DNA from: Methylopila sp. Yamaguchi
GTDB taxonomy: Bacteria > Pseudomonadota > Alphaproteobacteria > Rhizobiales > Methylopilaceae
NCBI RefSeq assembly: GCF_002897035.1
Contig: NZ_BAUX01000012.1
Span: 62,001 to 126,000, forward strand
Direction of reading: 5' to 3'
DNA length: 64,000 nt
In this document: positions 9,280-61,488 of the stretch, piece after piece
How positions within the stretch are numbered: position 1 is the stretch's first letter
Layout of the letters: every line of letters starts with the position of its first letter
Program-made: the position numbers and the translations under genes
The notes under the pieces: generated by a model
What the model saw: the letters and a program-made list of their open reading frames with translations, nothing else
Told to the model about the DNA's origin: nothing
Database searches by the model: none

Positions 9280-9747
9280 CTAGGCAGGCGCGCCGCCCCT
9301 AAACCTCAGGAACGTCCGCGGCTCGCCGTCTCCGAACGCCATCACGTCGTAAGTCTCCGCCTCGCGTCCTTCGAGCTCCATGCCGGGCGACCCGATCGGC
9401 ATCCCGGCGACGGCCAGCCCACGGACCTTTGGACGCTCGGCCAGCAGGCGGTCGATCGCGGAGGCAGGCACATGGCCTTCCAACACGTAGCCGTCGATCT
9501 CGGCCGTGTGGCAGGATCGGAGGGCGACAGGCACGCCGAGCTTAGCTTTCACCGCGATGATGGCGTCGGTCTCCACAGTTTCCGCCGGGTAGCCGGCCGC
9601 ACGGACATGGTCGACCCAGGCCTCGCAGCAGCCGCAGGACGGGTCCTTGTGGACCACCATTCGCGGCTTGCCCCCGGCGCGAGCGTGGCCGACGGCGGCG
9701 GCGGCCGCTATCAGCGAAAGCGCGATCCTTCGAGTAATCCGATGCAT
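9280..9747 (-). CDS. DUF411 family periplasmic metal-binding protein
   Basis: About 155 residues: signal peptide (RRIALSLIAAAAAVGHARA), then the DUF411 core with DPSCGCCEAWVDHVRAAGYP near the N-terminus, the LRSCHTAEIDGYVLEGHVPA motif and GLAVAGMPIGSPGME. DUF411 proteins are found in copper-resistance clusters and are thought to bind copper through the CxCC and downstream Cys/His. GGAG lies five bases before this ATG and only two before an ATG one codon earlier, which favours the second. Last gene of the copper operon. Confidence 0.85.
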   Translation of the reverse strand: MHRITRRIALSLIAAAAAVGHARAGGKPRMVVHKDPSCGCCEAWVDHVRAAGYPAETVETDAIIAVKAKLGVPVALRSCHTAEIDGYVLEGHVPASAIDRLLAERPKVRGLAVAGMPIGSPGMELEGREAETYDVMAFGDGEPRTFLRFRGGAPA

Positions 9748-9808
9748 CATCTCTCCGTCCTCGGGTCTGGATGCGTGGGACGGGCGGCGTTGTCTGCGGA
9801 CGTGCGGA

Positions 9809-10552
9809 TCAACGCAAGACCATCCAGACGGCCATGCCGACCATCATGAGGTTCTCGGTCAGAGAGACGAAGCCGAGCGGCACGTTGCTCGAGCCGCCGA
9901 CGCAGGCGCATTTGAGTTCGCGCTTGTCCACGTAGACCGCCTTGAACACCGATATCGCGCCGATCGAGCCGATGAACAGCGCGACCGGGATCGACACCCA
10001 GTGCAGCGCGCCCGCGGTCATGAGCACGCCAGCCAGCGCCTCTGCGTACGGGTAGACGTAGCCGTAGCGAACCCAGCGCTTCGCCAGAAGGTCGTAGTTC
10101 AGGAACATGGTCGAGAAGCTCTCGACGTCCTGCAGCTTCAGCAGCGCGAGCACGCACATGCTGATCGATACGAACCACTCCGCGGCTTGGACCGTGAAGG
10201 GCGTGCCGAACGCGGCGTGGCTCGCCGCAAGCGCGACCAGAGCGGCCATAGCGAACACGGCGACGACGGGCCTGTAGCTGGTTTCGCCGGGCTTCGGGAC
10301 GTGCAGGCCGAAATGGCGGCGGAGGTCGTCGTAACCGCCGATGCGCCGCCCGTCGATGAAGATCTGCGGGGTGGTCTTCACCCCGTATCGCTCCTTAAAC
10401 GCGTCGGTCTCGTTACGCGTCTTGAGCCAGTGGTCATCGACCTCGAAGCCATTGCGCCTAAGGAGGTCAACCGCCTTCGTCCCGTAGGGACAGACGTGCG
10501 ACGGCATCACCATGCGGTGGATCGACGCCGTCGGGCGCGTGGTCGTGCTCAT
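9809..10552 (-). CDS. Glutaredoxin-MauE fusion membrane protein
   Basis: A 247-residue protein. Residues ~12-85 form a glutaredoxin fold with a one-cysteine CPYG active site and TTPQIFIDGRRIGGYDDL. Residues ~90-247 are a MauE/DoxX-like domain with four membrane segments and a KCACVGG motif in the last loop. MauE-type proteins act in disulfide handling in the periplasm. In a copper operon this protein probably protects or repairs cysteines, but that is inference. GGAG six bases before the ATG supports the start. Confidence 0.8.
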   Translation of the reverse strand: MSTTTRPTASIHRMVMPSHVCPYGTKAVDLLRRNGFEVDDHWLKTRNETDAFKERYGVKTTPQIFIDGRRIGGYDDLRRHFGLHVPKPGETSYRPVVAVFAMAALVALAASHAAFGTPFTVQAAEWFVSISMCVLALLKLQDVESFSTMFLNYDLLAKRWVRYGYVYPYAEALAGVLMTAGALHWVSIPVALFIGSIGAISVFKAVYVDKRELKCACVGGSSNVPLGFVSLTENLMMVGMAVWMVLR

Positions 10553-10613
10553 GTCGTCTCCCGAGCGCCGGGCGCCGCCGCGACGACCGCTTCCGACGCT
10601 TCACGTGTGGTCA

Positions 10614-11063
10614 TCACTTGGCCCGGGCGTTCGCCCAGCTCTCAAACTGGGCGATCTGCTTCTCCTGGTCGGCGATGATCGCCTTCGCCCACGACTTGGC
10701 CTGTTCGTCCTTGCCGTGCTGGAGCTCGATCGTGCTCATCGCCACCGCGCCGCGATGGTGGGCGATCATCCCGCAGACGAAGGCGAGGTCCGGATCCTTG
10801 ATCCCATGCGCCGCCCTCATCGCCCGGTTCATCTCGTGCATCGCCTTCATGGAGGCCGTCTGCGGCCCGCGCATGTCGAACATCGAATGGGCCGCCATGT
10901 CGCCCATCTCCATGGCCTTGCCAGTCACGCCCTGCCCCGGCGAGGCGGCCTGACATGCTTTGGGGAGGCTCTCCGCGCCCTCTGGGGCCTGCTTGGCGTC
11001 CTGCGCCATCGCGGTCAAGCACGTCGCGGCCAAGGCCGCGGAAGCCAGAATGAACTTGTTCAC
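10614..11063 (-). CDS. DUF305 (CopM-type) exported copper-binding protein
   Basis: A 149-residue protein with a signal peptide (ILASAALAATCLTAMAQ) and a DUF305 four-helix region containing DMAAHSMFDM, EMNRAM and CGMIAHHRGAVAMSTIEL. The Met/His-rich helices are the basis for copper binding in this family. The start is GTG with AGGAG seven bases upstream; upstream in-frame codons lack a signal peptide. Part of the leftward copper operon. Confidence 0.85.
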   Translation of the reverse strand: MNKFILASAALAATCLTAMAQDAKQAPEGAESLPKACQAASPGQGVTGKAMEMGDMAAHSMFDMRGPQTASMKAMHEMNRAMRAAHGIKDPDLAFVCGMIAHHRGAVAMSTIELQHGKDEQAKSWAKAIIADQEKQIAQFESWANARAK

Positions 11064-11118
11064 GTCAGATCTCCTGATCAGATGTCGGCAGACGCGCGGC
11101 GCGCCCAAGCTCTCGAGG

Positions 11119-11403
11119 TCATTTCTTACGGATCTTGGTCACGGTGATCTGGCCGTTCACGCGCTCGGCTTCGAACGTCACCTTGTCGCCCGCCTTGACG
11201 GACTTGAGCATCGCGGGGTCGGCCGCCTTGAAGACCATCGTCATCGGATCCTCCATGTCGAGGCTCTTGATCGGGCCGTGGTCGAGCGTGATCTTGCCGG
11301 CCGCCTCATCGATCTTCTTCACCGTTCCGTCCGCTGCGAGCGCGACGGATGCGGAGAACAGCGCAGCTGACAGAATGGCGCCGGCGGAGACGAACTTTTT
11401 CAT
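11119..11403 (-). CDS. CusF-like periplasmic copper-binding protein
   Basis: A 94-residue protein: signal peptide (MKKFVSAGAILSAALFSASVALA), then a small beta-barrel domain with the CusF pattern GKITLDHGPIKSLDMEDPMTMVF. Its His, Met and Trp-equivalent positions bind Cu(I). It likely shuttles copper in the periplasm. No CusA/CusB efflux pump lies in the window, so the partner may be the multicopper oxidase or a pump elsewhere. Confidence 0.85.
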   Translation of the reverse strand: MKKFVSAGAILSAALFSASVALAADGTVKKIDEAAGKITLDHGPIKSLDMEDPMTMVFKAADPAMLKSVKAGDKVTFEAERVNGQITVTKIRKK

Positions 11404-11426
11404 CTGGATCTTCCTTGGTTCGCGGC

Positions 11427-11897
11427 TCACTTGACGGCGACCGCGCCGTCCATGCCGGCCTCGCGGTGGCCGGGGATGAGGCAGGCGAAGTTGAACTCCC
11501 CGGCATTGGTGAACTTCCAGACGATCTCGCCGGACTTGCCGGGAGAGACGCGTCGCCCGTTCGGATCGTCGTGCTCCATGTCTGGGTTCTTGCGCATTGC
11601 GATCGCGTGGCGGTCGTTCTCGGCTCGGGTCGCGAGCATGAACTCGTGGTCGACCTGGCCCTCGTTCTTGAGGACGAAGCGCACCTGCTCGCCGCGCTTG
11701 GCGGTCAGGGAGCCGGGTTCGAACAGCATCTTGCCGTCGTCGGTCTCCTTCATGACGACCTCGACGGTGCGGGCGGGCTTGGCCGGATCTCCCGGCTCGC
11801 CATAGGCGCGCGTCTTGCCGTCATGGCCGGGGTCAGCGAGCGCGGCGGCCGGCGCGAGGACCGCTGCGAGCGCGGCGGTGACGATGAGCTTCCTCAT
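11427..11897 (-). CDS. Cupredoxin-domain copper protein
   Basis: A 156-residue exported protein with signal peptide MRKLIVTAALAAVLAPAAALA and a single plastocyanin/azurin-like domain. The type-1 copper ligands are visible: His in VDHEFML, then Cys-His-Met in FACLIPGHREAGMDG near the C-terminus. It probably carries copper or electrons in the periplasm. It starts 27 bases after the multicopper oxidase stop. Confidence 0.85.
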   Translation of the reverse strand: MRKLIVTAALAAVLAPAAALADPGHDGKTRAYGEPGDPAKPARTVEVVMKETDDGKMLFEPGSLTAKRGEQVRFVLKNEGQVDHEFMLATRAENDRHAIAMRKNPDMEHDDPNGRRVSPGKSGEIVWKFTNAGEFNFACLIPGHREAGMDGAVAVK

Positions 11898-42593: not shown

Positions 42594-43219
<626 letters not shown>

Positions 43220-43223
<4 letters not shown>

Positions 43224-43915
43224 GTGCGAAACAACCTCGTGCGTTGGGTTTCGTGGCGCATGGACGCGATGTCGGACCGGAACGCCGCGCCGGACACGTC
43301 GTCGAGCGGCGTGGCCGCCGCGCGCGCGGCGGCCACGAGCACGGCCGGCTCCAGCGCCGCGAGCGCCTTGAGCCCGTCGGTCTGGCCGAGCGGCACCAGC
43401 CGCACGGCGGCGGAGATCAGGTTCGCGACGCCCGCGTGCAGGAAGGCGGCAAGCGCGGGACCGCGCGGCAGGCCGTGGCCGGCGCTCGCGAGAGCCACCG
43501 CGACGGGATAGGCGACCGGCCCCTCCCAGCTCCCGGCGAGATCGAGCGCTGAGGTCGGCGCCGAGGCGCGGATCGCGGTGAGGAACGCGCTCCCTTGCGC
43601 GAAGCTTTCAAGGCGCCGTTCGCGCGACGGCTGGAACGCCGCGGCGAGCTCGGCCACGGCGGCGAACATTGCGGCGTCGCCCTCGCAGACCGCGTCGTGG
43701 GCGCGTGCGAAGAAGACGGCGTCGGACCCAAGCCCGCCGTGCGCGAGCAGCGCGTCGAGCCAATCGACCAGCGCCGGGCGACTCGTGACGTCGCCGATCT
43801 CCACGGCCCACTCCAGCCCGTGGCTGTAGGAAAAGGCGCCGATCGGAAAGGCCGGCGACAGCCAGGTGAGCAGTTTCAGGAGGCCTGCTTCGGCCGCGTC
43901 GATCCGGGCCAGCAT
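43220..43915 (-). CDS. ureF: Urease accessory protein UreF
   Basis: A 231-residue all-helical protein with the UreF start [28 protein letters not shown] and C-terminal [13 protein letters not shown]. UreF binds UreG and UreD (UreH) to form the nickel-delivery complex. It starts right at the ureE stop and overlaps ureG. ureD is not found nearby. Confidence 0.92.
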
Positions 43916-44669: not shown

Positions 44670-44790
44670 CCGTGCAGTGCGTCTAGGGTTCCGGCCGTCC
44701 GATCAGGGCGGCGCTGGTCCGAGAGACGCACTCTCCGCTGAGCATGCGGGGAGACACGGCGGGGCAAAATCCCGGGAGGTCACTGCACGG
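44670..44790 (+). promoter_or_regulatory. Guanidine-I (ykkC) riboswitch
   Basis: A near-complete ykkC-class aptamer. Ten-base P1 stem CCGTGCAGTG (44670-44679) pairs perfectly with CACTGCACGG (44781-44790). Inside are the class-defining conserved segments: TCTAGGGTTCCG (44682-44693), GGTCCGAGAGACGCAC (44716-44731) and ACACGGCGGGGCAAAATCCC with GGGAGG after it (44754-44779). Free guanidinium is its ligand. It stands ~90 bases before the importer start. A following hairpin (GGTTCG-N6-CGAACC, 44790-44807) competes with the P1 end and may be part of the switch; no T-run follows, so control may be at translation or by an unseen mechanism. Confidence 0.95.
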
Positions 44791-44881
44791 GTTCGTCGCC
44801 GCGAACCGACCTCCATTGCTTTCGTGCGCGGCGGACTCCGAGGACACCACGGCTCATATGGCCGACCGAGGAGCGTTCCGC

Positions 44882-45940
44882 ATGCTACGCAGGCTCATCG
44901 CCGCTCTTGCTCTCTCCGCGACCGTCTTCGCGCCCTCCGCCGAAGCCGCCCCGAAGAAATCCTTTGAGATCGCCTGGACCATCTACGTCGGCTGGATGCC
45001 GTGGCCCTACGCGGCCGACAGCGGCATCGTGAAGAAGTGGGCGGACAAGTACGGCATCGACATCAAGGTCACCCAGATCAACGACTACGTGGAGTCGATC
45101 AACCAATACACCGCCGGCAAGTTCGACGGCGTCACGCTGACCAACATGGACGCGCTGACGATCCCGGCCGCCGGCGGCGTCGACACGACGGCGGTGATCG
45201 TCGGCGACTTCTCCAACGGCAATGACGGCATCGTCTCCAAAACGGCGAAGTCCGTCGCGGACCTGAAGGGCGAGAGCATCAACCTCGTCGAACTTTCGGT
45301 CTCGCACTACCTGCTCGCCCGGGCGCTGGAAGGCGCGGGCCTGTCGGAGAAGGACGTCAAGGTCGTCAACACCTCCGACGCCGACATGGTGGCCGCCTTC
45401 AAGGCCCCGGACGTGAAGACCGTGGTCACCTGGAACCCGCTGCTGGCCGAAGTGAAGGCCGAGCCGAACGTGACCCCGCTGTTCGACAGCGCAAAAATTC
45501 CCGGCGAGATCATCGACGTGCTCGCCGTCAACACCGAGACGCTGAAGGACAACCCGGACTTCGGCAAGGCGCTGGCCGGCATCTGGTACGAGACGCTCGC
45601 GCTGGTCACGGACCCCGGCGAGAAGGGCAAGGAAGCCCGCGCCGCCATGGGTAAGCAGTCCGGCACCGACCTCGCGGGCTTCGACTCGCAACTCGAGGCC
45701 ACCAAGCTCTTCGCCAAGCCCGCGGACGCCGTTTCGTTCACGGAGAGCGCCGAGATCGTGAAGACCATGGACCTCGTGCGCACCTTCTCCTTCGACCATG
45801 GACTGCTCGGCGAGGGCGCCAAGTCGAAGGACGCGGTCGGCATCGGCTTCGCCGGCGGCAAGACGCTGGGCGACGCGGGCAACGTGAAGCTGCGCTTTGA
45901 CCCCACCTTCATGAAGATGGCCGCCGACGGGAAACTGTGA
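44882..45940 (+). CDS. ABC substrate-binding protein of the guanidine operon
   Basis: A 352-residue NMT1/TauA-type binding protein: signal peptide (LIAALALSATVFAPSAEA), then FEIAWTIYVGWMPWPYAADSGIVKKWADKYGID, TLTNMDALTIPAAGGVDTTAV and a C-terminal PTFMKMAADGKL. It resembles the binding proteins usually labelled 'urea ABC transporter, urea carboxylase region'; with a guanidine riboswitch in front, guanidine is the more likely ligand. AGGAG eight bases before this ATG picks it over an ATG at 44858. Confidence 0.88.
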   Translation: MLRRLIAALALSATVFAPSAEAAPKKSFEIAWTIYVGWMPWPYAADSGIVKKWADKYGIDIKVTQINDYVESINQYTAGKFDGVTLTNMDALTIPAAGGVDTTAVIVGDFSNGNDGIVSKTAKSVADLKGESINLVELSVSHYLLARALEGAGLSEKDVKVVNTSDADMVAAFKAPDVKTVVTWNPLLAEVKAEPNVTPLFDSAKIPGEIIDVLAVNTETLKDNPDFGKALAGIWYETLALVTDPGEKGKEARAAMGKQSGTDLAGFDSQLEATKLFAKPADAVSFTESAEIVKTMDLVRTFSFDHGLLGEGAKSKDAVGIGFAGGKTLGDAGNVKLRFDPTFMKMAADGKL

Positions 45941-46030
45941 CGGGCGCCGCGCCTCCGCGCCTTATGCGTCGAACGATCCCGGATCGGCCGTAGGCCGTCC
46001 GGGATAACGGCCTATCCACACGGAGTCCTC

Positions 46031-46852
46031 ATGCGTCGCGCCATGAACATCCGTCCGAACCCGGGCGGCCGCCTGCTGCTCGCGATCATCCCCTTCGTGC
46101 TGCTGGCGCTCGTCTACGTGCTGGGATCGGCGGAGCGTCGGGCGGTCAACCCCAACGACAAGCTGCTGCCGCCGTTCTCCGAGATGGCGACCACGGCGAC
46201 GCGCATGGCGACCGAGCCCGACAAACGGACCGGCGAGATCACGATGGTCGCCGACACGGCCGCCAGCCTCCAGCGGCTCGCGCTGGGGCTCGGCCTCGCC
46301 ACGCTGATCGGTCTCTCGCTCGGCGTCGCGATCGGCATCCTGCCGGTCGCCGACGCGAGCGGCGGGCCGCTGGTCGGCGTGCTGTCGATGATCCCGCCGA
46401 TGGCGATCCTGCCCATCCTGTTCATCGTCTTCGGGCTGGGCGAAGTCTCGAAGGTGGTGCTGATCGTGATCGGCGTCGCGCCCTGCATCGTGCGCGACAT
46501 CGCGATGACCGTTCAGGCGATCCCGGTCGAGCAACTGGTGAAGGCCCAGACGCTCGGCGCCTCCACCTGGCAGACCGTGCTGCGGGTCGTCCTGCCGCAG
46601 GCGCTGCCGCGGTTGATCGAGGTGGTGCGGCTGCAGATCGGGCCAGCGTTCCTGTTCCTGATCGCGGCGGAGGCGATCGCGGCGGACTCCGGGCTCGGCT
46701 ACCGTATCTTCCTCGTCCGCCGCTACCTCGCGATGGACGTGATCCTGCCCTACGTCGCGTGGATCACGCTGCTCGCCTTCGTCATGGACTGGGCGCTCGC
46801 GAAGCTGTCGCGCTCCGCCTTCCCCTGGGCCTATGCGGGGGAGCGCCGATGA
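46031..46852 (+). CDS. ABC permease of the guanidine operon
   Basis: A 273-residue SsuC/TauC-type permease with about six helices and the coupling loop VKAQTLGASTWQTVLRVVLPQALPRLIEVVRL. Forms the inner-membrane channel for the binding protein 90 bases upstream; stop overlaps the ATPase gene (ATGA). Confidence 0.9.
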   Translation: MRRAMNIRPNPGGRLLLAIIPFVLLALVYVLGSAERRAVNPNDKLLPPFSEMATTATRMATEPDKRTGEITMVADTAASLQRLALGLGLATLIGLSLGVAIGILPVADASGGPLVGVLSMIPPMAILPILFIVFGLGEVSKVVLIVIGVAPCIVRDIAMTVQAIPVEQLVKAQTLGASTWQTVLRVVLPQALPRLIEVVRLQIGPAFLFLIAAEAIAADSGLGYRIFLVRRYLAMDVILPYVAWITLLAFVMDWALAKLSRSAFPWAYAGERR

Positions 46853-47628
46853 GCGCGATCTCCGTCCGCGACGTCTGGGTTGAGTTCGGCGACCAGATCG
46901 TCATCGAGAACCTCAACCTCGACATCGCCTCGGGCTCCTTCGTCTCGGTCGTCGGCCCCTCCGGCTGCGGCAAGAGCACCTTCCTGCGCATGGTGCTCGG
47001 CCAGGACCGCCCGACGCGCGGAACCCTGACGCTCGACGGCAAGCCGCTGCCAGACGAGCCGGGCGCCGACCGCGGCGTGGTTTTCCAGCGCTACTCGGTG
47101 TTCCCGCACCTCACCGTTCTCGGCAACGTGCTCGCGGGCTACGAGTTCGCGCAGGCGCCGCTGCTCGGAAAGCTGTTCGGCGCCGAGCGCCGGGCCGCGA
47201 TCGCGAAGGCCGAGGAGCTGATCGACGCGGTCGGCCTCGGGGCGCACCGCGACAAGTACCCAAGCGCTCTGTCCGGCGGCATGCAGCAGCGTCTCGCCAT
47301 CGCCCAGGCGCTCGCGAAGGATCCGAAAGTGCTGCTGCTCGACGAGCCGTTCGGCGCGCTCGACCCCGGCACCCGCGTCCAGATGCACGGGCTGCTCAAG
47401 CCGCTGTGGTCGCGGCTCGGGATGACCGTGATCATGGTCACCCACGACCTCAAGGAGGCCTTCACCCTCGGCACCCGGGTGATCGCCTTCGACAAGACCC
47501 GCCACGATCCGCAGGCCCCCGGCCGCTTCGGCGCCCGCATCACCTACGACCTCGACCTCACGCGCGATGTCGCGGTGCCGGTGCTTGGCTTTTCGAAGCC
47601 TCCGCTCGAAGCGAGGGCCGCGCAGTGA
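46849..47628 (+). CDS. ABC ATP-binding protein of the guanidine operon
   Basis: A 259-residue SsuB/TauB-type ATPase: Walker A GPSGCGKST, Q-loop VVFQRYSVFPH, signature LSGGMQQRLAIAQAL, Walker B LLLDEPFGALDP and H-loop VTHDL. ATG overlaps the permease stop. The 130-base gap that follows contains a fragment of intergenic palindrome and a small inverted repeat (47712-47728) before gdmH. Confidence 0.92.
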   Translation: MSAISVRDVWVEFGDQIVIENLNLDIASGSFVSVVGPSGCGKSTFLRMVLGQDRPTRGTLTLDGKPLPDEPGADRGVVFQRYSVFPHLTVLGNVLAGYEFAQAPLLGKLFGAERRAAIAKAEELIDAVGLGAHRDKYPSALSGGMQQRLAIAQALAKDPKVLLLDEPFGALDPGTRVQMHGLLKPLWSRLGMTVIMVTHDLKEAFTLGTRVIAFDKTRHDPQAPGRFGARITYDLDLTRDVAVPVLGFSKPPLEARAAQ

Positions 47629-47758
47629 GCGCCGCTCGCGGGTCCCGCCTCGTCATGCCCCGGACAGGCCGGGGGATCACGTTCAGTTTTCGTCACTACC
47701 CGCTGATGACGTTCCCGAGCCTCGGGAAGACGGCCAGCCTTACCCAAGGAGAAGCCGA

Positions 47759-48964
47759 ATGACCTCGTCGCCCATCCATCGCCGCCGCCTCGCAGGACTG
47801 GCCGCCTCGCGCGAACGCCTGCGCCGCCACCATCCCGACTTCAGCAAGATGGACACCCAGGGCTGGAAGGCGCTCGACGCGGAAAGCCGCCTGCCGGAGA
47901 CCATGTGGCGCAAGGAGCAGCAGTGGGCGCTCGACATGGGCCTGCCCGGCGCGGACAGCATCACCGATAAGTCGATCCCGACCTTCGCCCGCGGCGAGCT
48001 TCCCCACTTCGCCGGCATCAACACCTTCATGAAGGCGCCCTACGTCGAGAACGTCCGCGACGTCGGGAACTACGACGCCGCCGTGATCGGCATTCCGTTC
48101 GACTCCGGCACCACCTATCGCCCGGGCACCCGCTTCGGGCCGCAGGGCGTGCGCCGCATCTCGGCGCTCTACACCCCCTACAACTACGAGATGGGCATCG
48201 ACCTGCGCGAGCAGATGACGCTGTGCGACGCCGGCGACGTGTTCACGATCCCCGCGAACCTCGAAAAGAGCTTCGACCAGATCACCCGCGGGGTCAGCCA
48301 CATCGCCTCCTCCGGCGCGCTGCCGGTCATGATCGGCGGCGACCACTCCATCGGCTTCCCCTGCGTCCGCGGTATCGCCGACGTCACCTCCAAGCGCATC
48401 GGCATCATCCACTTCGACCGGCACATCGACATCCAGGAGAAGGACCTCGACGAGCGCATGCACACGACGCCCTGGTTCTGGGCGACGAACCTGCCGAACG
48501 TGAGCCCGAAGAACCTCGTGCAGCTCGGCATCGGCGGATGGCAGGTGCCGCGCTACGGCGTCAGCGAGGCGCGCAAGCGCGACACCAACGTGCTGACGAT
48601 CGACGACATCGAGAAGTTCGGCCTGGAGAAAACCGCCGAGATCGCGCTCGAACTCGCCTGGAAGGACGCCGACGCGGTCTACATTTCCTTCGACGTGGAC
48701 TCGATCGACTGCGGCTTCGTGCCGGGCACCGGCTGGCCGGAGCCGGGCGGCTTCCTGCCGCGCGAGGCGCTGAAGATCCTCGGGCTCGTCACCGCGCCGG
48801 GCATTTGCGGGCTCGAGGTGGTCGAGGTCTCCCCGCCCTACGACACCTCCGACATCACCGCGCTGTTCGGCACCCGCGTGATCGTGGAGGCGCTGGGCTC
48901 GATGGTCGCCCACGGCACGCTCGGCAAGCACAAGTCGATCATCGACAAGCCGGTGAGCTTCTGA
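47759..48964 (+). CDS. gdmH: Guanidine hydrolase (arginase/agmatinase family, probable nickel enzyme)
   Basis: A 401-residue ureohydrolase with all metal motifs: GGDHSIG (residues ~193-199), DRHID (220-224, the DxHxD motif) and FDVDSID (~311-317). The ~100-residue N-terminal extension and motifs such as HFDRHIDIQEKDLDERMHTTPW and PGTGWPEPGG (Trp where agmatinases have Thr or Ala) match my memory of the GdmH group from cyanobacteria. That group hydrolyses guanidine to urea and ammonia and needs Ni(II). The guanidine riboswitch upstream supports this over agmatinase. Ribosome site AAGGAG. Confidence 0.82.
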   Translation: MTSSPIHRRRLAGLAASRERLRRHHPDFSKMDTQGWKALDAESRLPETMWRKEQQWALDMGLPGADSITDKSIPTFARGELPHFAGINTFMKAPYVENVRDVGNYDAAVIGIPFDSGTTYRPGTRFGPQGVRRISALYTPYNYEMGIDLREQMTLCDAGDVFTIPANLEKSFDQITRGVSHIASSGALPVMIGGDHSIGFPCVRGIADVTSKRIGIIHFDRHIDIQEKDLDERMHTTPWFWATNLPNVSPKNLVQLGIGGWQVPRYGVSEARKRDTNVLTIDDIEKFGLEKTAEIALELAWKDADAVYISFDVDSIDCGFVPGTGWPEPGGFLPREALKILGLVTAPGICGLEVVEVSPPYDTSDITALFGTRVIVEALGSMVAHGTLGKHKSIIDKPVSF

Positions 48965-48971
48965 GGCGGCC

Positions 48972-49508
48972 ATGCACGACGGACACGACCATCCCCACGA
49001 GCACATGGGCAGCCATTTCCACGGCCACGCCCATCCCGGCCATGCGCATACCCGCCCCGGCCCCGGCCACAACGCCGGCCCGAAGCGGAACGCGCAGTGG
49101 CAGACGCCGCACCTGCCGCACGGCCATGCGCCGCAGCCGGAAGACCCGAGGACGACCGATCTCGACCTCGTGGAGGCGGCCTTCGTGGAGGCCTTTTCCG
49201 CGGCCTCAGACCCGACGAGCTTTCTGCGCGTCGCCGGCATTCCCTTCGTCGGCGAGGATGAGGCGGGGCGGCGGTTCCACCTGCTGCGCGTCGAGGTGGA
49301 GGACCGCGTCGACGTCGGCGCCGTCGCTCCGCTTCTGGGCGGCGCGGGCGTGCGCTACGATCCGCTGCCGGCTAAGATGACCTCGCGCCGCCGGGCGCTC
49401 GCCTTCCTGTTCCACGACGGCCGCGCCGTCGTCCGCCTCGACTTCGCCGCCGCGCGCGCGCTCAGCGACCGCAGCCAAGCCTCACGCTTCGACACGCCCT
49501 CGGCATGA
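48972..49508 (+). CDS. His-rich protein, candidate nickel-binding accessory for guanidine hydrolase
   Basis: A 178-residue protein whose first 52 residues contain 15 His (MHDGHDHPHEHMG ... PHLPHGHAP), then a folded ~120-residue domain (DLDLVEAAFVEAFSAAS; FHLLRVEVEDRVDVGAVAPLLGG; FLFHDGRAVVRLDF) that I do not recognise. No signal peptide, so cytoplasmic. It starts seven bases after gdmH and overlaps the next region. His tracts of this type store or hand over nickel in HypB and UreE proteins; a role in GdmH loading is inferred from place and composition. Confidence 0.7.
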   Translation: MHDGHDHPHEHMGSHFHGHAHPGHAHTRPGPGHNAGPKRNAQWQTPHLPHGHAPQPEDPRTTDLDLVEAAFVEAFSAASDPTSFLRVAGIPFVGEDEAGRRFHLLRVEVEDRVDVGAVAPLLGGAGVRYDPLPAKMTSRRRALAFLFHDGRAVVRLDFAAARALSDRSQASRFDTPSA

Positions 49509-49528
49509 TGCCTTCCGGAGACAGATCC

Positions 49529-50122
49529 ATGCGCCGTTCCCTCCTCCGCGCCGCGCTCGCCGGCGCATCCGCTCTCGCCCCCACCCTCGCGCTCGCCCAT
49601 CCGGGCCACGGCGAGGCCTTCGGCTTCGCCGCGGGCGTCGGCCACCCCGTCGGCGGCCTCGACCACGTGCTCGCGATGGTGATGGTCGGCGTGTTCGCCG
49701 CCCAGCTCGGCGGTCGCGCGCTCTGGGCCGTGCCGGCGACCTTTGTCGCGGTGATGGCGCTGGGCGGCGGGCTGGGCATGGCGGGCGTCGCGCTGCCTTT
49801 CGTGGAGACCGGCATCGCGCTCTCCATCGTCGTGCTCGGCGTCGCGGTGGCTCTCGGCGTCAAGGCGCCGGTCGCCGCCGCCATGGCGCTGGTCGGGGTG
49901 TTCGCCACCTTCCACGGCTACGCCCACGGCGCCGAAGCGCCCGAGACCGCGAGCGGCGCGGCCTACGCCGCGGGCTTCCTGCTCGCGACCGCGGCGCTGC
50001 ACGCGGCGGGCGTCGGCTTCGGCCTGCTCACCGCGAAGCTCTCCGCTGCGAACGGCGGCCTGGTCGCGCGCGCGGCCGGCGGCCTCGCTGCGCTTGCGGG
50101 CGTCGTGATCCTGCTGGGCTGA
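49529..50122 (+). CDS. HupE/UreJ-family membrane protein
   Basis: A 197-residue protein: signal peptide, then HPGHGE as the first mature residues, the family motif HPVGGLDHVLAMVMVGV and FHGYAHG on later helices, with about six membrane segments. HupE/UreJ proteins import nickel for hydrogenase and urease. GGAG eight bases before the ATG at 49529 decides the start over ATGs at 49505 and 49508. Ends the guanidine operon and adds a likely Ni(II) supply. Confidence 0.88.
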   Translation: MRRSLLRAALAGASALAPTLALAHPGHGEAFGFAAGVGHPVGGLDHVLAMVMVGVFAAQLGGRALWAVPATFVAVMALGGGLGMAGVALPFVETGIALSIVVLGVAVALGVKAPVAAAMALVGVFATFHGYAHGAEAPETASGAAYAAGFLLATAALHAAGVGFGLLTAKLSAANGGLVARAAGGLAALAGVVILLG

Positions 50123-59915: not shown

Positions 59916-60450
59916 CGCATCAACCTTTCCTCTACGTCGCGAGCCTCAGGGCCCGGCTACTCGTGATATGGGAAGTGTGCGTAGTTTTTGATCTGTTTGC
60001 CTAGTAAAAAAGCAGAAGTTGGCTAAACTATCAGCATGCTCGGTTCCGCCGCGCATTTCGCGGCCCGTTGCGCGTCCCGCGCGCATGCACATTAGGCAGG
60101 CGCTCGTCATGCAGCGCCGAGGGTTGACAGCGATCTCTAACAGCGATCAGGCCTTCCGGCGCCTGAACCCCGGCGCGCAGACGCGGCCCTCATGGGGCGC
60201 TGCTTAAGCGACTGATTTCAGGTCGGGTTCGGCAAGCGGCACGAAGCCTCGGCCACGCGGGAGGCCGTCATCGTCCTTTCCGACATAGGGCCCGCACGCG
60301 ATCGGACCAGGGGCCGGCGCCTCCGGCGCCCCGCCAACTGGCATGTTTACTGCTTTGGGAGGGTGCGGTCGTCGACGCTCGCGTCGGCGGGCGACCGGCC
60401 GCGCCGAGATTCTGGACCCCTCGCGTCATACGCTTTCTGAGAGGCTCGAA
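59916..60450. other. Divergent control region of DUF2735 and glnII
   Basis: 535 bases without a gene. The sigma-54 promoter (see separate entry) lies at its right end. The left part has an AT-rich run (TAGTTTTTGATCTG ... AGTAAAAAAGCAG, 59975-60015), a likely DUF2735 promoter. A G/C-rich palindrome GGCGCC-TCC-GGCGCC is at 60316-60330. No clear NtrC box (TGCACC-N5-GGTGCA) was found by eye. Confidence 0.5.
60339..60353 (+). promoter_or_regulatory. Sigma-54 promoter of glnII
   Basis: TGGCATGTTTACTGC has the GG-N10-GC spacing required for a -24/-12 promoter (GG at 60340-60341, GC at 60352-60353); consensus is TGGCACG-N4-TTGCA/T. Transcription would begin near 60365, about 86 bases before the glnII ATG. 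NtrC activation of glnII is established in rhizobia; here it is inferred. Confidence 0.75.
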
Positions 60451-61488
60451 ATGACGAAGTTTAAGCTCGAGTACATCTGGCTCGACGGCTACGCCCCGGT
60501 GCCGAACCTCCGCGGCAAGACCCAGATCAAGGAGTTCGACTCCTTTCCGTCTCTCGAGCAGCTGCCGCTTTGGGGCTTCGACGGCTCGTCCACGATGCAG
60601 GCCGAGGGCCACAGCTCCGACTGCGTGCTGAAGCCCGTCGCGGTCTATCCGGATCCGGCCCGCACCAACGGCGCGCTCGTGCTGTGCGAAGTCATGATGC
60701 CGGACGGCGTCACCCCGCACTCCACCAACAAGCGCGCCACCATCCTGGACGACGAAGGCGCCTGGTTCGGCTTCGAGCAGGAGTACTTCTTCTACCAGAA
60801 CGGCCGCCCGCTCGGCTTCCCCGAGCAGGGCTACCCCGCCCCGCAGGGCCCGTACTACTGCGGCGTCGGCTACGCGGCCGCCGGCGGCATCGCGCGCGAG
60901 ATCGTCGAGGAGCATCTCGACCAGTGCCTCGCGGCCGGCATCAACCACGAAGGCATCAACGCGGAAGTCGCGAAGGGCCAGTGGGAGTTCCAGATCTTCG
61001 GCAAGGGCTCCAAGAAGGCCGCTGACGAGATGTGGATGGCGCGCTACCTGCTGCAGCGCCTGACCGAGAAGTACGAGATCGACATCGAGTATCACTGCAA
61101 GCCGCTGGGCGACACCGACTGGAACGGCTCCGGCATGCACTGCAACTTCTCGACCGAGTACATGCGCACGGTCGGCGGCAAGGACTACTTCGAGGCCCTA
61201 ATGGCGGCCTTCGACAAGAACCTGATGGACCACATCGCCGTCTACGGCCCGGACAACGACAAGCGTCTGACCGGCAAGCACGAGACCGCGCCGTGGAACA
61301 AGTTCTCCTACGGCGTCGCTGACCGCGGCGCTTCGATCCGCGTGCCGCACTCCTTCGTCAAGAACGACTACAAGGGCTATCTCGAGGATCGCCGCCCGAA
61401 CTCGCAGGGCGACCCCTACGCGATCGCCTCGCAGGTCCTCAAGACGATCTCGGAAGTTCCGACCGAGAAGGCCGCCGCCGCGGCCTGA
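60451..61488 (+). CDS. glnII: Glutamine synthetase type II
   Basis: A 345-residue eukaryote-type GS: KLEYIWLDGYAPVPNLRGKTQI, LWGFDGSSTMQAEGHSSDC, FGFEQEYFF, AGINHEGINAEVAKGQWEFQI, NGSGMHCNFST, and C-terminal RRPNSQGDPY. Condenses glutamate and ammonia into glutamine. No GSI adenylylation Tyr, as usual for type II. Start is the ATG after AGGCTCGAA. Sigma-54 promoter upstream, terminator downstream; single-gene unit. Confidence 0.95.
   Translation: MTKFKLEYIWLDGYAPVPNLRGKTQIKEFDSFPSLEQLPLWGFDGSSTMQAEGHSSDCVLKPVAVYPDPARTNGALVLCEVMMPDGVTPHSTNKRATILDDEGAWFGFEQEYFFYQNGRPLGFPEQGYPAPQGPYYCGVGYAAAGGIAREIVEEHLDQCLAAGINHEGINAEVAKGQWEFQIFGKGSKKAADEMWMARYLLQRLTEKYEIDIEYHCKPLGDTDWNGSGMHCNFSTEYMRTVGGKDYFEALMAAFDKNLMDHIAVYGPDNDKRLTGKHETAPWNKFSYGVADRGASIRVPHSFVKNDYKGYLEDRRPNSQGDPYAIASQVLKTISEVPTEKAAAAA

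What the first reader, a model, noticed from the sequence alone, without database searches (positions are those of the whole stretch)
44670..50122. Guanidine-sensing and -degrading locus with riboswitch, importer, GdmH-type hydrolase and nickel proteins
A textbook guanidine-I aptamer (perfect 10-base P1, all conserved inner segments) opens an operon of ABC importer, arginase-family enzyme, His-rich protein and HupE/UreJ-type nickel permease. Automated labels would read this as 'urea ABC transporter + agmatinase + hydrogenase accessory' and hide the biology. Guanidine-I riboswitches and nickel-dependent guanidine hydrolases are established; the specific combination with its own nickel supply chain, beside urease accessory genes, looks like a self-contained guanidine-nitrogen module that may not be described in this form.
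Basis: partly seen in the sequence, partly recalled or inferred. Interest (0 to 1): 0.88.

Follow-up and report, generated by a model that had tools for sequence, protein, structure and literature searches.

The report
Guanidine operon with unrecognised nickel-helper candidate
This is a set of genes, probably switched on by guanidine, for importing and breaking down guanidine as a nitrogen source; it carries an unnamed histidine-rich protein that, in related alphaproteobacteria, sits beside the nickel-dependent guanidine-splitting enzyme where a cyanobacterium has known nickel-loading proteins.

Summary
A guanidine-I riboswitch (RF00442, 86.1 bits) with a perfect 10-bp P1 opens a six-gene operon: three importer genes (binding protein TIGR03427), a GdmH-family guanidine hydrolase (543 bits to Synechocystis GdmH, next family 172; both specificity residues present), a His-rich protein and HupE/UreJ. 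So far this is a known kind of operon.

The new part is the His-rich protein ("HisR", my label). It has no convincing Pfam, NCBIfam or PDB match, yet follows gdmH in 80 of 80 named relatives. Among 297 genomes of the order, 31 have gdmH and 30 of these have HisR; the exception lacks the guanidine-specific Trp, and the one HisR-only hit lies in a prophage. Of those 30 genomes, 23 have neither HypA nor HypB, homologues of the chaperones reported as required by Synechocystis GdmH. HisR subtype follows the GdmH tree.

Best reading: HisR is a GdmH-dedicated nickel-binding delivery or holding protein standing in for HypA/HypB. Metal binding and delivery are inferred, not shown. The adjacent urease accessory genes are incidental (1 of 80 loci).

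The parts
44670..44790 (+). Guanidine-I riboswitch aptamer with 10-bp P1 (Rfam match 44672-44780)
44858..45940 (+). Periplasmic substrate-binding protein of the ABC importer (start 44858 or 44882)
   Evidence: TIGR03427 556 bits; start candidates
46031..46852 (+). ABC permease
   Evidence: PF00528
46849..47628 (+). ABC ATP-binding protein, 4-base overlap with permease
   Evidence: PF00005; start
47759..48964 (+). Guanidine hydrolase, GdmH family
   Evidence: PF00491 249.9 bits; PDB 7esr/7oi1 543 bits, 9fek 520 bits; T117 and W324 (= Synechocystis T97, W305; numbering of the 399-aa query 47765-48961) and six conserved metal-ligand-type His/Asp positions
48972..49508 (+). HisR: His-rich N-terminal tail plus conserved ~110-aa domain; candidate GdmH-dedicated nickel-binding/delivery protein, unnamed family
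   Evidence: follows gdmH in 80 of 80 named loci; no convincing Pfam/NCBIfam/PDB match; AF2 domain mean pLDDT 87
49505..50122 (+). HupE/UreJ-type (nickel) permease, 4-base overlap with hisR
   Evidence: PF04955 186.2 bits
43916..44362 (-). ureE, divergent neighbour, not a conserved part
   Evidence: PF05194/PF02814; near 1 of 80 loci
43220..43915 (-). ureF, divergent neighbour, not a conserved part
   Evidence: PF01730; near 1 of 80 loci
42594..43223 (-). ureG, divergent neighbour, not a conserved part
   Evidence: TIGR00101 335 bits; near 1 of 80 loci

Best explanation
A guanidine-inducible nitrogen-scavenging operon. Guanidine binds the riboswitch and turns the operon on; the ABC importer brings guanidine in; GdmH splits it into urea and ammonium; urease encoded elsewhere splits the urea. 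GdmH needs nickel. HisR, whose His-rich tail should bind nickel and whose folded domain is proposed to dock on GdmH, holds nickel and delivers it to the enzyme in place of the HypA/HypB (GhaA/GhaB) pair; HupE imports nickel in this and some other species. Shown here by sequence: riboswitch family, enzyme family and specificity residues, gene order, near-perfect co-occurrence of HisR with GdmH, absence of HypA and of HypB over cut-off, presence of urease genes. Inferred: guanidine response, import substrate, catalysis, nickel dependence of this enzyme, nickel binding by HisR, its docking, and delivery.
For: Riboswitch; Rfam in 7 of 7 loci tested, session model in 76 of 80 (7 of the 8 sequences it was built from are among these loci). 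Enzyme. Urease: two ureC. HisR follows gdmH in 80 of 80 (79 by single sequence; L145 by profile). In 297 genomes of the order, own included: gdmH (E<=1e-100) in 31, HisR (E<=1e-3) in 31, both in 30; the gdmH-only genome G140 has Ser for the guanidine-specific Trp; the HisR-only hit in G130 is weak (4.3e-5) and lies among phage tail and portal genes. Phylum draw: HisR domain profile in 6 of 378 genomes, each one a gdmH carrier. HypA absent from the own genome and from 23 of the 30; these 23 also lack HypB (TIGR00073, E<=1e-30). HypA is no commoner with gdmH (7 of 31) than without (72 of 266). His median 20 per protein, median 17 in the first 60 residues; Cys-free in 66 of 81. HisR subtypes A and B each form one group on the GdmH tree; different Bauldia MAGs fall in both clades, each with the matching subtype. 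Synechocystis GdmH is reported to require two nickel chaperones (PMC11271267 and PMC12186494, passages).
Against: No metal binding, interaction or activity was measured. No fold match that would support a chaperone role. Comammox guanidinase is active without known chaperones (PMC11410670, passages), co-expressed chaperones made no significant difference to metformin hydrolase in cell extracts, although their knockout stopped growth (PMC11271267, passages), and four actinobacterial gdmH loci show neither HisR nor HypA/HypB nearby, so GdmH may not strictly need a helper. Within each HisR subtype the distance correlation of HisR with GdmH is no better than that of the importer genes, so coupling beyond gene order rests on one deep split. 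L142 carries its His-rich stretch at the other end and L159 has only 6 His, so the tail is not fixed. The 80 loci are the closest of 550 and share ancestry.
Confidence: 0.66

Rival explanations
1. HisR is a nickel buffer or store, like Hpn-type His-rich proteins, that lets the cell hold nickel when the operon is on, without inserting it into GdmH.
For: Variable His-rich tail with variable position and count; HupE nearby in 25 of 80 loci.
Against: A general store need not be confined to gdmH carriers, nor carry a conserved ~110-aa folded domain, nor follow the GdmH clade.
Confidence: 0.18
2. HisR's folded domain is mainly an assembly factor or regulatory subunit of GdmH and the His tail is secondary.
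For: The domain, not the tail, holds the invariant residues F71, D80, P120, P133 of 69 aligned members; L142 and L159 have moved or reduced tails.
Against: The N. inopinata enzyme forms a homohexamer when expressed alone in E. coli (PMC11410670, passages); most members keep many His.
Confidence: 0.1
3. Nickel reaches GdmH through the urease accessory proteins UreE/F/G, and HisR is dispensable.
For: ureEFG lie divergently beside this operon and the genome has a second ureG and two ureC.
Against: UreE/F/G lie near gdmH in 1 of 80 loci, HisR in 80 of 80; this does not exclude ureEFG acting from elsewhere in the genome.
Confidence: 0.1
4. The enzyme's true substrate is another guanidino compound.
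For: The high Km of the characterised guanidinase has raised this doubt (PMC11410670, passage).
Against: Guanidine-I riboswitch in front; T97 and W305 equivalents in the window and 80 of 80 loci; clear separation from metformin hydrolase, agmatinase and guanidinobutyrase sequences.
Confidence: 0.05

Closest known systems
Synechocystis sp. PCC 6803 gdmH operon (sll1077, GhaA/GhaB = HypA/HypB homologues, ABC importer, guanidine-I riboswitch)
   Same: Riboswitch class, ABC importer, GdmH enzyme at 543 bits with the same specificity residues
   Different: No HypA and no HypB over cut-off in the genome; HisR and HupE instead
Nitrospira inopinata / comammox guanidinase locus
   Same: Guanidine-I riboswitch and same enzyme clade (520 bits)
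   Different: Comammox uses an APC permease and has no chaperone nearby (PMC11410670, passages); here an ABC importer, HisR and HupE
Metformin / dimethylguanidine hydrolase operons (hypA, hypB, two ureohydrolases, hupE)
   Same: Nickel ureohydrolase beside a HupE nickel permease, with urea genes in Aminobacter (PMC11399263, passages)
   Different: Heteromeric enzyme, about 126 bits to this GdmH; uses HypA/HypB; I did not look for a riboswitch there
His-rich nickel proteins: HypB tail, UreE tail, Hpn/Hpn-2
   Same: His-rich stretch likely to bind nickel (works-like comparison; general knowledge of these proteins)
   Different: No sequence or fold relation of the folded domain found

Membership tests
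Guanidine-I riboswitch (RF00442) | Score at or above gathering threshold over the full aptamer | tested here: met
   86.1 vs 63 bits, positions 1-107
Guanidine-I riboswitch (RF00442) | Guanidine binding and guanidine-dependent expression | not testable with these tools
   Needs in-line probing or a reporter; an alternative hairpin overlapping P1 is possible but across 77 loci about as common as in shuffles (53 vs 45.5)
GdmH guanidine hydrolase | Clearly closer to characterised guanidinases than to other ureohydrolases | tested here: met
   543 and 520 bits, next 172
GdmH guanidine hydrolase | Thr97 and Trp305 (Synechocystis) for guanidine specificity | tested here: met
   T117 and W324 in window and 80 of 80 loci; W absent in G140 and Embleya; mapped through assuming chain numbers run 2 ahead of the paper's
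GdmH guanidine hydrolase | Nickel-dependent guanidine hydrolysis | not testable with these tools
   Needs enzyme assay and metal analysis
HypA/HypB (GhaA/GhaB) nickel chaperones | PF01155 or TIGR00073 match in the operon or genome | tested here: not met
   HypA none in own genome; HypB none over cut-off, the two best hits being UreG-like; around the 80 loci no HypA hit, and one HypB-profile hit which is the ureG of L080
UreE or other named nickel chaperone (for HisR) | Pfam/NCBIfam match or structural match of the folded domain | tested here: not met
   69 members scanned at E<=1: best Pfam E 0.017 (ZrgA), best NCBIfam 0.0025 (a nickel/cobalt efflux transporter model), one UreE hit at 0.19 and one HypB at 0.14; Foldseek PDB best E 0.36 and 0.54
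HupE/UreJ permease | PF04955 match over cut-off | tested here: met
   186.2 vs 23 bits

The most novel reading that the evidence does not exclude
HisR is the founding member of a new family of nickel metallochaperone with a fold of its own: a single protein without a GTPase partner that loads the metal centre of guanidinase across Alphaproteobacteria, replacing the HypA/HypB pair, so that guanidinases have at least two unrelated nickel-loading routes.
Probability: 0.45. Interest if true: 0.78.

Novelty: new variant of a known kind. Interest (0 to 1): 0.62.

Why it matters
How guanidinase gets its nickel is an open point: Synechocystis GdmH is reported to need two chaperones (PMC11271267, passage), while the loading route in Nitrospira inopinata is stated to be unclear (PMC11410670, passage). 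Here a conserved protein without a family name marks a third situation, in rhizobia, methylotrophs and marine alphaproteobacteria (names), and can be tested by one gene deletion and one co-expression. It may also serve as a marker for true guanidinases among genes labelled agmatinase.

Tried and rejected
Expression platform: in the window the 3' end of the aptamer can pair with GACCTCC downstream, but across 77 loci such pairing is about as frequent as in shuffles (53 vs 45.5) and none of the 53 is followed by 5 or more T in 9 bases; the switching mechanism stays open.

Urease accessory neighbours as part of the module: rejected, 1 of 80 loci; another same-genus genome, G215, shows none in 19 kb.

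HisR as a diverged HypA, UreE or HypB: not supported by family scans, PDB profile and fold searches. The viral fold library gave nothing at E<=0.001 either.

Distance correlation: GdmH-HisR r 0.92 against 0.58-0.67 for GdmH with importer genes over 66 of 80 loci (the other 14 lacked an importer gene above 200 bits, or were L145); after dereplication to 39 loci 0.86 vs 0.43-0.51, but within subtype A (23 loci) 0.49 vs 0.51-0.68 and within B (15) 0.78 vs 0.63-0.88. So I use only the single deep split.

Importer gain and loss: one search counted 7 changes over 80 loci, but 2 of the 13 'no importer' loci (L129, L159) are cut by a contig end and L113 has a more distant binding protein; without these three the count is 4.
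Full report
What is there. The window is from an alphaproteobacterium of Methylopilaceae kinship: its GdmH groups with those of Methylopila and Hansschlegelia (lineage). The guanidine-I aptamer at 44672-44780 scores 86.1 bits, is the only match in the genome and has a perfect 10-bp P1. Six genes follow on the same strand: three importer genes, gdmH, hisR, hupE.

The enzyme. Against PDB sequences the arginase-family protein scores 543 bits with Synechocystis GdmH (7esr, 7oi1) and 520 with N. inopinata guanidinase (9fek); guanidinobutyrase comes next at 172, and metformin hydrolase subunits at about 126. The two residues tied to guanidine specificity (Thr97, Trp305; PMC11410670, passage) correspond to T117 and W324 of the 399-aa query and are present in the window and 80 of 80 relatives; of 86 rows, W324 is missing in G140 and Embleya only. 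Three other arginase-family stretches exist in the genome at 31-34% identity. Two ureC genes lie on other contigs, so the urea can probably be used.

The part without a name. The 178-aa protein after gdmH has a His-rich, low-confidence N-terminal tail and a C-terminal domain predicted with mean pLDDT 87 as helix-helix, six strands, two short helices. 69 members match no Pfam or NCBIfam family beyond weak hits, no PDB sequence at E below 0.31 and no PDB fold at E below 0.36.

Association with GdmH. In 80 loci found by GdmH alone (the best 80 of 550 relatives, at 74-94% identity, hence biased to close kin), a HisR gene follows gdmH in 79 by single-sequence search and in the eightieth, L145, by profile. 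In 297 genomes of the order (own included): gdmH 31, HisR 31, both 30. Class draw: 8 of 289 genomes have gdmH at E<=1e-90; 7 of these have HisR, and the eighth (G710) has a partial gdmH match with no HisR hit in the short stretch held. Phylum draw: 7 of 398 have gdmH, and all seven have HisR; the HisR domain profile finds 6 of 378 genomes, each a gdmH carrier; G649 is not among the hits, and whether it was in that draw is not shown. In four more distant gdmH loci of Actinomycetota (L180-L183) no HisR, HypA or HypB was found within about 7 kb; one of them has a guanidine-I element.

HypA and HypB. HypA is absent from the own genome. Of the 30 genomes with both gdmH and HisR, 7 have HypA (two of them partial matches: G015, G024) and 6 have HypB; 23 have neither (HypB sought at E<=1e-30). 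HypA is as common without gdmH (72 of 266) as with it (7 of 31). Around the 80 loci the HypA profile has no hit and the HypB profile one, the ureG of L080; 14 of the 80 loci are shorter than 20 kb, so their flanks are incomplete. These profiles were built here from 18 HypA and 16 HypB sequences of order-mates.

Two modules. On a GdmH tree of 86 rows HisR subtypes A (51) and B (28, with 2 unusual members beside them) each form one group (quick method, SH-aLRT 91 and 90), whereas presence of the importer changes at least 4 times over 77 loci. Different Bauldia MAGs fall in both clades, each with the matching subtype. Finer correlation within subtypes does not single out HisR.

Other members. HupE lies near 25 of 80 loci. 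In at least 11 others, chiefly Roseibium kin, Flavimaribacter and Denitrobaculum, the next gene is instead a 68-77-aa protein with a signal-peptide-like start, an HPGxH-type stretch and one hydrophobic segment, mostly overlapping hisR (read by eye). The riboswitch model finds 76 of 80 loci; none at E<=1 in L114, L128, L129 and L159, of which L129 and L159 have under 2 kb upstream.

Literature. Searches of the open library: in the listings, and in the passages of the 7 papers opened (one also in outline), I saw no mention of a His-rich protein beside guanidinase. Funck et al. 2022, the key paper, was not seen, so prior mention there cannot be excluded.

Verdict. The operon is a known kind; the GdmH-linked HisR family, standing where HypA/HypB would be expected, makes it a new variant. 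Its role as nickel delivery protein is the most likely reading but unproven.

Noticed in passing
L135-L138, L140, L141, L144, L145, L148, L152, L154 just after hisR: A small protein (68-77 aa) with signal-peptide-like start, HPGxH-type stretch and one hydrophobic segment follows hisR in place of HupE, in most overlapping it by a few bases; possibly a reduced nickel-related membrane protein (by eye).
   Followed up: partly
L069 / L188 (G140): A GdmH relative (56% identity) with Ser in place of the guanidine-specific Trp, a His-containing insert, HupE next to it and no HisR hit: probably a ureohydrolase of other specificity.
   Followed up: partly
L180 (Rubrobacter indicoceani plasmid): Actinobacterial gdmH just behind a guanidine-I element, followed by a sodium:solute symporter, formamidase and urease genes: perhaps another importer type for guanidine.
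   Followed up: no
window 60436-61488: Glutamine synthetase-like gene about 10 kb downstream.
   Followed up: no
window 9280-11897: Group with a DUF411 protein and a copper-binding cupredoxin, probably copper handling.
   Followed up: no
own genome C20:55055-56752 and C2:274113-275813: Two urease alpha genes over the family cut-off; the C20 copy has a ureG-like gene beside it.
   Followed up: partly
L187 (G130): The weak HisR hit there lies in a prophage-like stretch with tail sheath, tail tube, tape measure and portal genes.
   Followed up: yes
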